From positions 1 through 64,000 of the forward strand of contig CAIUMD010000047.1 of assembly GCA_903900155.1 (NCBI GenBank): a DNA stretch of 64,000 nucleotides. The letters are read 5' to 3'. The notes under the pieces were generated by a model. That model ran no database searches, had not been told where the DNA came from, and saw nothing but the letters and a program-made list of their open reading frames with translations. The DNA is from an uncultured Caulobacterales bacterium. Its GTDB lineage: Bacteria > Pseudomonadota > Alphaproteobacteria > Caulobacterales > Caulobacteraceae. Made by a program: the position numbers and the translations under genes. How positions within the stretch are numbered: the first letter of the stretch is position 1; every line of letters starts with the position of its first letter. Below are positions 27,711-30,253 of this stretch, piece by piece.

Positions 27711-27720
27711 CAGACTCCAT

Positions 27721-27747
27721 CCACGCCGCCGCGAGGCGACGGCGTGG
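27721..27747. terminator. Hairpin between convergent hslO and 27758..28666
   Basis: ccacgccg...cggcgtgg inverted repeat. Confidence 0.55.
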
Positions 27748-27757
27748 CGGGTTCCGG

Positions 27758-28666
27758 CTAGCGGCGCTTCACGGGCAGCACGGTGACGTGGGGCGTGGCG
27801 TTTCGCAGCCGCTCGTTGGGCCGCGCGGTCAGGCTGACAAGCTCCGGAAGGGCGGCGCCGTCGGCGAGACCATAGACCAGGGTCGTCGTCACGCCCGCCC
27901 GATTGCCGATCTCGTAGACCTCCGGGACGCCGACCAGGGGGATGGCGTTCTCGTCGGCGTCGGGCGTAGCGACCTGCAGAGCATCCGCGCTGAGGGGCGC
28001 GCTGTCGACGGGGCGCCGGATCAGCACCTGAAGCTCGGCGCTGCCTGTGATCAGATTGTAGGCCAAATCCGCGCTGATGATTTGGTCGTCGCTACTCAGC
28101 CCGACCTCCTTCAAGGTCGTGGACGAAGAGGTGCTGTCCGACGCCGCCGCGGCCAGCGCACCGCCGGCCGTCGCGCTGCCGTTGACCGTCCAGGTCTGGG
28201 TCACCAGAACGCTGTTGTTGGTGGCGTTGATCAGCTTGCCTTGGAAGAAGAGATCGATCGCGTACGACGTGCCTGCCCTCACGTTGTTGAAGCCGGGCGC
28301 ATCCGTCATCCAGAAGTCCGCGCCCGTGGCCTGATTGGGGTTGGTGTAGCGATCGTGCGTCATGGTGCAGGCGCGATAGCCGTAGGCGGTGCAGCCGGCG
28401 CAGCTCGCGCCGTTGGGCGGGCAGCCGTCTTCGTAGTAGACGCTGGTCGACAGGACGATCGCGCCGCACAGCACGTGCCGCAGTGGCGAGCCGTTGGCGG
28501 TGAACGAGCCCATCACGTATTGGCGATAGGCGCCCGCGGCGCAGGTCTCGCCCGACCCGCAGGTAAAGGTCGCCGTGTTGCTGAAGGATCCGGCGTAGCG
28601 ACCGCCGTTGAAAATGGGGGTCACGTTGGCGGTTGGCGTGACAAAGCTTGAATAGCCGATAGCCAT
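27758..28666 (-). CDS. Uncharacterised Cys-rich protein
   Basis: 302-aa ORF with SD (aacaggagatttcc ATG); CGSGETC...CPPNGASCAGCTAYGYRAC; no family recognised. Confidence 0.8.
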   Translation of the reverse strand: MAIGYSSFVTPTANVTPIFNGGRYAGSFSNTATFTCGSGETCAAGAYRQYVMGSFTANGSPLRHVLCGAIVLSTSVYYEDGCPPNGASCAGCTAYGYRACTMTHDRYTNPNQATGADFWMTDAPGFNNVRAGTSYAIDLFFQGKLINATNNSVLVTQTWTVNGSATAGGALAAAASDSTSSSTTLKEVGLSSDDQIISADLAYNLITGSAELQVLIRRPVDSAPLSADALQVATPDADENAIPLVGVPEVYEIGNRAGVTTTLVYGLADGAALPELVSLTARPNERLRNATPHVTVLPVKRR

Positions 28667-28830
28667 GGAAATCTCCTGTTCGGAGGACGCGCGACGTCGC
28701 GTGTCGCGAGGGGGCGCGATGAAGGGGAATGGACGGCCTAGCTCAGGCCATGGTCGCGAGTTGAGGTCTTCTCGGTGAAATGTGAGCGAGCGCCAGAATT
28801 TCGCCCGCTCACACCTTCGGGCCCGGAAGT

Positions 28831-29499
28831 CTATTTGACGACTTGGGTCGACCAGCTGCCGTCCGCGTTGAGCGAGGCGTTGATGATCGAATAGCCGCCC
28901 GTGAAATCACAGATGGCGGAGTTGACGCTCGACTGGGTGAAGTTCATCACCGTACCGGCCGTATATTTGCCGGTTTGGACGTAGTACTTCAGGATCGGTT
29001 GGCAGTCGGTGTGGCTGGACGGATTGGCGACCACGAAGTTCGACAGCGTGATTCCGCCGTTCACCTCGACCGCCGAGCCCACATTGTAGATGGACGGCGG
29101 CGACAAATAGGTGGGGGTCGTGATCCGGAAGGCGCCGGGTTGAACATTGACGCCGGCGCTCGGCTGCGACAGGCCCAGCGGGTCGATTGACGCCATCGTC
29201 GCGCTGTTGGCGCTGCCGGTGGCCGGCGTCAGGTCGATGGCCCGGCTGGCCGAGGCGTAGCCCGAGGTCTGCCCGATGGTCGGCGTCCTGTGCGCCTGCT
29301 GGATGCCCGCGTAGTACTGCATGTTCACTTGGAACGTGAGCTGGGCGCCGGTTTCCTGGTAGTTGCCGAGGCTCTGGGAGTAGAGGCTGTTGCTGTAGAC
29401 GGCGGAACCGCCGCTATAGACCGCAGGCTGCTGAAAGAAGTAGAATTCTTGGGTCGAAGCGCCAAGATTAGTGACGTTGATGGTCAATAGCGTAGACAT
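28831..29499 (-). CDS. Uncharacterised protein
   Basis: ORF from ATG at 29499 with strong SD (cagggagataaat ATG); MSTLLTINVTNLGASTQEFYFFQQPAVYSGG...; no family recognised. Confidence 0.8.
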   Translation of the reverse strand: MSTLLTINVTNLGASTQEFYFFQQPAVYSGGSAVYSNSLYSQSLGNYQETGAQLTFQVNMQYYAGIQQAHRTPTIGQTSGYASASRAIDLTPATGSANSATMASIDPLGLSQPSAGVNVQPGAFRITTPTYLSPPSIYNVGSAVEVNGGITLSNFVVANPSSHTDCQPILKYYVQTGKYTAGTVMNFTQSSVNSAICDFTGGYSIINASLNADGSWSTQVVK

Positions 29500-29679
29500 A
29501 TTTATCTCCCTGTAAAATTGATTTCGAGGAGATCGCGGCATCGAGGCACCTGGCAACTTTGAAAAGGTGCTCGATGCCTCCGATTACTTTGGTCCCCTCA
29601 CTCAAAATTTAGCGACATTCGACGGGGGCATGCCACGACGTGCTGTTTACCGACGGTATGTGTGAGCATGAGATTTTAC

Positions 29680-30060
29680 CTATGGTTGATGATCGCCAGG
29701 CGCGCCTGACCACGACAGGGGCGGGATTTCCCGGATCAGCGCGACCAGGACCTTGGAGATTCGCGTCGGCCGCTCTCGAAGCCTGCCGATGATGTCGAGT
29801 TCGGCCTCGCTCAGTCGATCGGGCAGCAGCCAGTCGGGTCCGTTGCGACCCATCAGGAACCAGTCCAGCGAGATATCCAGCACCGTGGCCAGGGTGCAGG
29901 CATGGTCGACCGACATCGAATGCCCCTGCGTCCACTTGGTCAGCGCGGCAGGCGAGATATTGAGATCGGCGGCGAGCGCCGTAGCCTTCCGGTGGCCGCG
30001 CGTCATCATCGCCTGCCGCAGTCTCGTCCCACGCTCTTTAGAGAGTCGTTGATTGATCAT
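29680..30060 (-). CDS. Xre/cI-like transcriptional regulator
   Basis: KERGTRLRQAMMTRGHRKATALAADLNISPAALTKWTQGHSMSVDHACTLATVLDISLDWFLMGR. Confidence 0.85.
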   Translation of the reverse strand: MINQRLSKERGTRLRQAMMTRGHRKATALAADLNISPAALTKWTQGHSMSVDHACTLATVLDISLDWFLMGRNGPDWLLPDRLSEAELDIIGRLRERPTRISKVLVALIREIPPLSWSGAPGDHQP

Positions 30061-30253
30061 GGTTGCTCTCCCCAACTGCAACCATGAGAAGGCATTATCA
30101 TTAATACTCGCTTTGAGGGAATTTGTATACGCGTAAGCTTGGCCCCGCAGCGTTCGACGCAGCGGACCCTCCAGCCTTGCGGCCGTGGAGATGATGGTGA
30201 GTTTTGGAGGAAGCTTCGATGGCCAGGCGCCGAACCGGAGCCTGGCCTTGTCG

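What the first reader, a model, noticed from the sequence alone, without database searches (positions are those of the whole stretch)
27758..30081. Accessory block between hslO and apaG: two uncharacterised proteins plus a cI-like repressor
Between housekeeping argF-hslO and apaG-metZ lie three minus-strand genes: an Xre repressor, a 223-aa protein (MSTLLTINVTNLGASTQEFYFFQQPAVYSGG...) and a 302-aa Cys-rich protein. Spacing is loose, with long structured intergenic regions, unlike the flanks. Both proteins have very strong SDs, are rich in Ser/Thr/Asn/Gly/Tyr as in beta-rich extracellular or capsid-like proteins, and lack an obvious signal peptide. A repressor next to two abundant-type beta-proteins could be a regulated secreted, aggregating or toxin-like system. 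This is my best candidate for an undescribed system in the window.
Basis: partly seen in the sequence, partly recalled or inferred. Interest (0 to 1): 0.72.

Follow-up and report, generated by a model that had tools for sequence, protein, structure and literature searches.

The report
Repressor-controlled RhiA-type accessory gene cassette
Between two housekeeping genes of a Caulobacter-type bacterium sits an exchangeable three-gene cassette whose main protein is a distant cousin of RhiA, an abundant root-zone protein of Rhizobium known since 1984 whose job is still unknown; a switch protein beside it probably turns it on and off.

Summary
The three genes are real and conserved as a unit. The 222-aa protein (P1) is not family-less: it belongs to a broad superfamily with RhiA of Rhizobium leguminosarum, an abundant cytoplasmic, quorum-sensing-induced protein of unknown function. 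The P1 subfamily is 53-85% identical across Alpha- and Gammaproteobacteria, often on conjugative plasmids, and its usual neighbour is the same type of Xre regulator. The 302-aa protein (P2) is an unrelated orphan family, found in 10 of 61 genomes of the genus and once outside it. The hslO-apaG gap is a genus-wide variable site: 23 of 53 assessable genomes carry a RhiA-type cassette there, with interchangeable parts, whereas 13 have 150 bp or less; a very near relative (99% ApaG) has an 80-bp empty site. An operator-like ACC-N3-GGTA site lies between Xre and P1 in four divergent modules with the same Xre type (0 of 1000 shuffles). So the cassette is real, mobile and probably repressor-controlled. 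Secretion, aggregation and toxicity are unsupported; RhiA is cytoplasmic and not released. It is best filed as a new variant of a known but functionally unsolved kind. Structure predictions failed (pLDDT 41-47).

The parts
29680..30060 (-). Xre/cI-type DNA-binding regulator, 126 aa (P0003)
   Evidence: Pfam PF07022 3.7e-6, PF01381 7.9e-6, PF13443 1.3e-4, all above cut-off; 60-71% identical to the Xre beside P1 in G801, Roseibium and Pararhizobium
29644..29658 (-). predicted operator TACCGTCGGTAAACA (ACC-N3-GGTA) between Xre and P1
   Evidence: unique in the window; ACC-N3-GGTA at 22-36 bp after the Xre stop also in G801, Roseibium/Stappia and Pararhizobium; 0 of 1000 shuffles share any such gapped repeat across the four regions
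28831..29499 (-). P1, 222-aa RhiA-superfamily protein
   Evidence: relatives 53-85% identical in Alpha- and Gammaproteobacteria; RhiA-family HMM scores it 18.5 bits, best decoy 13.9; strong link through the congeners' P1c proteins
27758..28666 (-). P2, 302-aa orphan protein with an N-terminal part holding invariant Cys
   Evidence: 10 of 61 genomes of the genus and one other genome of the class; no Pfam, NCBIfam, PHROG or PADLOC match; not related to P1 (hhalign probability 0.5%)
27711..30253 (.). variable site between convergent hslO and apaG that holds the cassette
   Evidence: gap is 2549 bp here, 80 bp in G031 whose ApaG is 99% identical; 23 of 53 genomes hold a RhiA-type cassette, 13 have 150 bp or less

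Best explanation
This is a horizontally exchanged accessory cassette. Shown: P1 belongs to the same protein superfamily as RhiA; P1 genes are regularly preceded by the same type of Xre regulator; P2 is a genus-enriched partner; cassettes of this kind are gained, lost and reassorted at the hslO-apaG site. Inferred: the Xre protein represses the P1(-P2) transcript from an operator between its own gene and P1. When it is relieved, by a cue that is not known (in Rhizobium the cue for rhiA is cell density in the root zone), P1 is made in large amounts and stays in the cytoplasm as a soluble or self-assembling beta-rich protein, with P2 as a lineage-specific partner. It serves growth in a crowded or host-associated niche, as rhiABC is reported to do, rather than acting as a secreted toxin.
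For: Superfamily: the profile of the congeners' P1-type proteins finds RhiA in the whole pRle248a record at E 1.1e-6; a protein 40% identical to RhiA from another proteobacterium is found by the same family's HMM at 1.7e-11; a RhiA-family HMM scores the P1c group at 40-51 bits and window P1 at 18.5, best of about 7400 shuffled or reversed decoys 13.9; hhalign 91-99% probability. Module: Xre-P1 in Roseibium, Stappia, R. rhizogenes, R. acidisoli, Pararhizobium, A. vitis and Caulobacter; A. vitis has Xre-P1-P1b-RhiC, RhiC 60% identical to Rhizobium RhiC; R. acidisoli has it beside a LuxR and an AHL synthase. Mobility: 101 plasmid records, 79 typed conjugative; empty sites. Operator. Relative's biology: RhiA highly expressed, cytoplasmic, not released (PMC2275737); rhiABC induced in rhizospheres (PMC3333776) and density-controlled (PMC4149787).
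Against: Window P1 itself meets the RhiA family only weakly; the link rests on intermediates. RhiA's molecular function is unknown, so the analogy gives setting, not chemistry. No expression data. The operator is a motif in four regions, two of which (window, G801) may share it by descent, and it was found after the test was adjusted. P1-type genes are not always with Xre (G805, G806, G807 have no Xre hit at the site), so the repressor is not essential to the family. No LuxI/LuxR pair was sought for the window genome.
Confidence: 0.6

Rival explanations
1. The hslO-apaG cassettes are a defence or competition hotspot: Xre-controlled, interchangeable beta-rich proteins with a DUF4347 or P2 partner act against phage or rivals.
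For: One chromosomal site with many alternative cassettes and empty sites; a regulator of repressor type; in eight congeners a stand-alone DUF4347 protein replaces or joins P2 (Pfam 1.1e-6), with His in 8 of 8 and Cys in 4 of 8 at a dyad-like position; P2 evolves fast (dN/dS 0.54).
Against: No PADLOC match for P1, P2 or the DUF4347 protein; P1 is under strong purifying selection (dN/dS 0.16); half of the DUF4347 proteins lack the Cys; nothing catalytic is recognised in P1 or P2.
Confidence: 0.15
2. P1 is a storage or inclusion protein like PixA/AidA: made in bulk, forming intracellular bodies.
For: Strong Shine-Dalgarno sequences, no evident signal peptide, S/T/N/G/Y-rich composition; RhiA is very abundant (PMC2275737).
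Against: No match to Pfam PixA at E up to 1; no report of RhiA inclusions found.
Confidence: 0.13
3. A secreted, surface or toxin-like system.
For: One congener (G033) has an RTX/cadherin-like protein at the same site; small neighbours with apparent signal peptides in Rhizobium and Phaeobacter modules.
Against: No evident signal peptide on P1 or P2; RhiA was not detected in supernatant; no toxin-family match.
Confidence: 0.07
4. A prophage or phage remnant.
For: cI-type HTH; RhiB in the rhi operon is annotated as a tail-fibre protein.
Against: No phage record with P1, no viral-contig relative, no phage gene in the block.
Confidence: 0.03

Closest known systems
RhiA / rhiABC of Rhizobium leguminosarum bv. 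viciae (Cubo et al. 1992, cited in PMC2275737)
   Same: Same protein superfamily as P1; size 22-25 kDa; no Pfam domain; no evident signal peptide; plasmid-borne accessory operon with small partner genes; in A. vitis a P1 module carries an RhiC homologue
   Different: Separate subfamily (tree); rhiA is driven by LuxR-type RhiR with AHL and sits with rhiB and rhiC; here an Xre gene and P2, no RhiB or RhiC, chromosomal site
PixA/AidA inclusion-body family (PF12306)
   Same: By my own knowledge: small, abundant, cytoplasmic proteins, some under density control
   Different: No sequence match
DUF4347 proteins (PF14252)
   Same: Stand-alone DUF4347 proteins occupy the P2 position or its neighbourhood in congeners
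   Different: None in the window cassette; otherwise, by my own knowledge, DUF4347 is mostly a domain of large surface proteins

Membership tests
RhiA superfamily | full-length profile similarity to RhiA | tested here: met
   RhiA-family HMM: window P1 18.5 bits, best decoy 13.9; P1c 40-51 bits; hhalign P1 group versus RhiA group 91% over 192 columns
RhiA proper (orthologue in a rhiABC operon) | clusters with RhiA and sits with rhiB and rhiC under a LuxR/LuxI pair | tested here: not met
   P1 and RhiA fall in separate supported groups; no rhiB or rhiC beside window P1
RhiA superfamily | abundant, cytoplasmic, not released | not testable with these tools
   reported for RhiA only (PMC2275737); no expression data for the window
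Xre / cI-type repressors | Cro/cI helix-turn-helix above curated cut-off | tested here: met
   PF07022, PF01381, PF13443 above cut-off
Xre / cI-type repressors | binds an operator and represses the neighbouring genes | tested here: inconclusive
   conserved ACC-N3-GGTA between Xre and P1; binding not testable
PixA/AidA (PF12306) | Pfam PixA match | tested here: not met
   no family up to E 1 for P1 or P2
Known anti-phage defence systems | PADLOC model match of the effector | tested here: not met
   none for P1, P2 or the DUF4347 protein
Phage structural proteins | PHROG match or phage homologue | tested here: not met
   only E 0.06 and 0.21; no phage record

The most novel reading that the evidence does not exclude
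The hslO-apaG site of the genus is a dedicated exchange site for an undescribed modular system: Xre-switched, RhiA-type proteins combined with interchangeable partners (P2, DUF4347 His/Cys protein, 95-aa protein), with relatives carried between orders by conjugative plasmids, working together as one machine in competition, defence or host association.
Probability: 0.25. Interest if true: 0.7.

Novelty: new variant of a known kind. Interest (0 to 1): 0.5.

Why it matters
RhiA has been a marker of root-zone life for four decades without a function and without a recognised family. Placing it in a superfamily that reaches Caulobacter, roseobacters, Serratia and Azotobacter, with a simple one-gene switch in place of quorum sensing, gives tractable laboratory models in which to ask what RhiA-type proteins do. 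Naturally empty sites in close relatives give matched controls.

Tried and rejected
Pfam, NCBIfam, PHROG, PADLOC and PDB sequence searches of P1 and P2: nothing useful. The P2 hits to designed armadillo proteins at 250-288 are treated as chance: almost all are designed sequences, the stretch is about 38 residues and no Pfam family is matched. AlphaFold2 with the thin permitted alignments gave pLDDT 41 and 47, and fold searches on these models gave TM-scores of 0.1-0.24 (query-normalised) or no significant match; only 'mostly beta' is kept. Viral contigs and phages: no relatives. A general inverted-repeat test of the intergenic regions was not significant in the window; an earlier shared-motif test demanding two flanking bases found nothing; the one-base form with the G801 region added did, so the operator was found after adjustment and is only a prediction. 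Rfam: one sub-threshold chance match.

Full report
The three genes are open, in the stated order and strand, with strong ribosome-binding sites. The regulator is Xre/cI-type. P1 and P2 have no Pfam or PADLOC match and only chance-level NCBIfam and PHROG ones. The claim of long structured intergenic regions is not supported by terminator, Rfam or inverted-repeat tests.

Conservation. P1 has full-length relatives at 85% in Caulobacter sp. BP25, 76-77% in Roseibium and Stappia and 68% in Rhizobium rhizogenes, and in 101 plasmid records of Rhizobium, Phaeobacter, Serratia, Agrobacterium, Pararhizobium, Parasedimentitalea and Azotobacter, 79 of them typed conjugative. An Xre gene of the same type precedes it in most chromosomal and several plasmid modules read. 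P1 is often followed by a paralogous second copy, P1b. G801, a congener, has Xre-P1-P1b-P2 in one block, so the window module may be a version that lacks P1b. P1 is under purifying selection (dN/dS about 0.16 against BP25), P2 much less so (0.54). P1 has lower GC (0.61) than its flanks (0.67-0.69), and Xre a lower GC3 (0.77 against 0.90-0.95). The window Xre is 61% identical to that of Roseibium but 35% to that of BP25, while P1 is closest to BP25: the parts are reassorted.

The site. Positions of ApaG and HslO in 61 genomes of the genus give 53 where both lie on one contig: 23 hold a RhiA-type cassette (gap 0.7-6.6 kb) and 13 have a gap of 150 bp or less, including G031 whose ApaG is 99% identical to the window's (80 bp with a terminator-like hairpin). 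G031 has no P1-type or P2 match anywhere. Cassette content varies: Xre-P1-P2, Xre-P1c-DUF4347, tandem P1c, P1c plus a 95-aa protein, or fusions P1-P2-P1.

Identity of P1. The search led to plasmid pRle248a, which carries both a P1 gene and the annotated rhiA and rhiC genes. A profile of the congeners' P1c proteins finds RhiA in that record at E 1.1e-6. Proteins from two other proteobacteria of the phylum sample are 40% and 32% identical to RhiA and are found by the P1c HMM at 1.7e-11 and 8.7e-11. With eight RhiA-family members as query and about 7400 shuffled or reversed decoys, P1c proteins score 40-51 bits, window P1 18.5, the best decoy 13.9; profile-profile probabilities are 91-99%. The tree puts P1b, P1c and RhiA each in one supported group and P1 next to P1b. 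In A. vitis CG957 one module has Xre, P1, P1b and an RhiC homologue at 60% identity, and in R. acidisoli the module lies beside a LuxR gene and an AHL synthase. P2 is unrelated to P1 and almost confined to the genus.

Working model. Shown: family, linkage, variable site, purifying selection. Inferred: Xre represses P1-P2 from ACC-N3-GGTA at 29644-29658, a site shared by the four modules with this Xre type and unique in the window; when relieved, P1 accumulates in the cytoplasm. The literature on RhiA supports abundance and cytoplasmic location (PMC2275737), induction in rhizospheres (PMC3333776) and density control through RhiR (PMC4149787). Its biochemical role is not known, so the function given here is setting and behaviour, not chemistry.

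Limits. Structure prediction was restricted to few sequences and failed. Literature search covers open-licence papers only; the original rhi paper was not held. Genome samples are one per species. Gene calls in unannotated loci are my own and some reading frames, those antisense to genes above all, may be spurious.

Noticed in passing
G007 C1:1913860-1941492 (ends in L129, L130): In this congener hslO and apaG are 27.6 kb apart: a large island sits at the same site, with a TonB-receptor-like gene next to apaG.
   Followed up: no
L118, L123, L124 (G818, G010, G005): A second genus site with a tandem pair of divergent RhiA-type genes; in L118 it lies between a two-component system and a purL-like gene.
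   Followed up: partly
L111 4373-5035 (G814): A P1-subfamily copy without Xre lies near purN-like and ndk-like genes, away from the hslO-apaG site.
   Followed up: partly
L029 2373-5933 (G033): A 1186-aa RTX/cadherin-like protein stands at the hslO-apaG site beside a P1-P2-P1 fusion.
   Followed up: partly
L139 4491-6756 (G063): The only P2 relative found outside the genus lies next to two DUF2589 proteins and no RhiA-type gene.
   Followed up: partly
L008, L025, L029, L030, L066, L112, L115, L122: Stand-alone DUF4347 proteins with an invariant GHG motif; the Cys of an LYGC/LFGC motif is kept in 4 of 8.
   Followed up: partly
L044 5989-6939 and L042 7001-7944: P1 relatives on Azotobacter and Serratia plasmids carry an extra C-terminal part of roughly 90 residues; the Serratia copy in L042 has a broken frame.
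   Followed up: no
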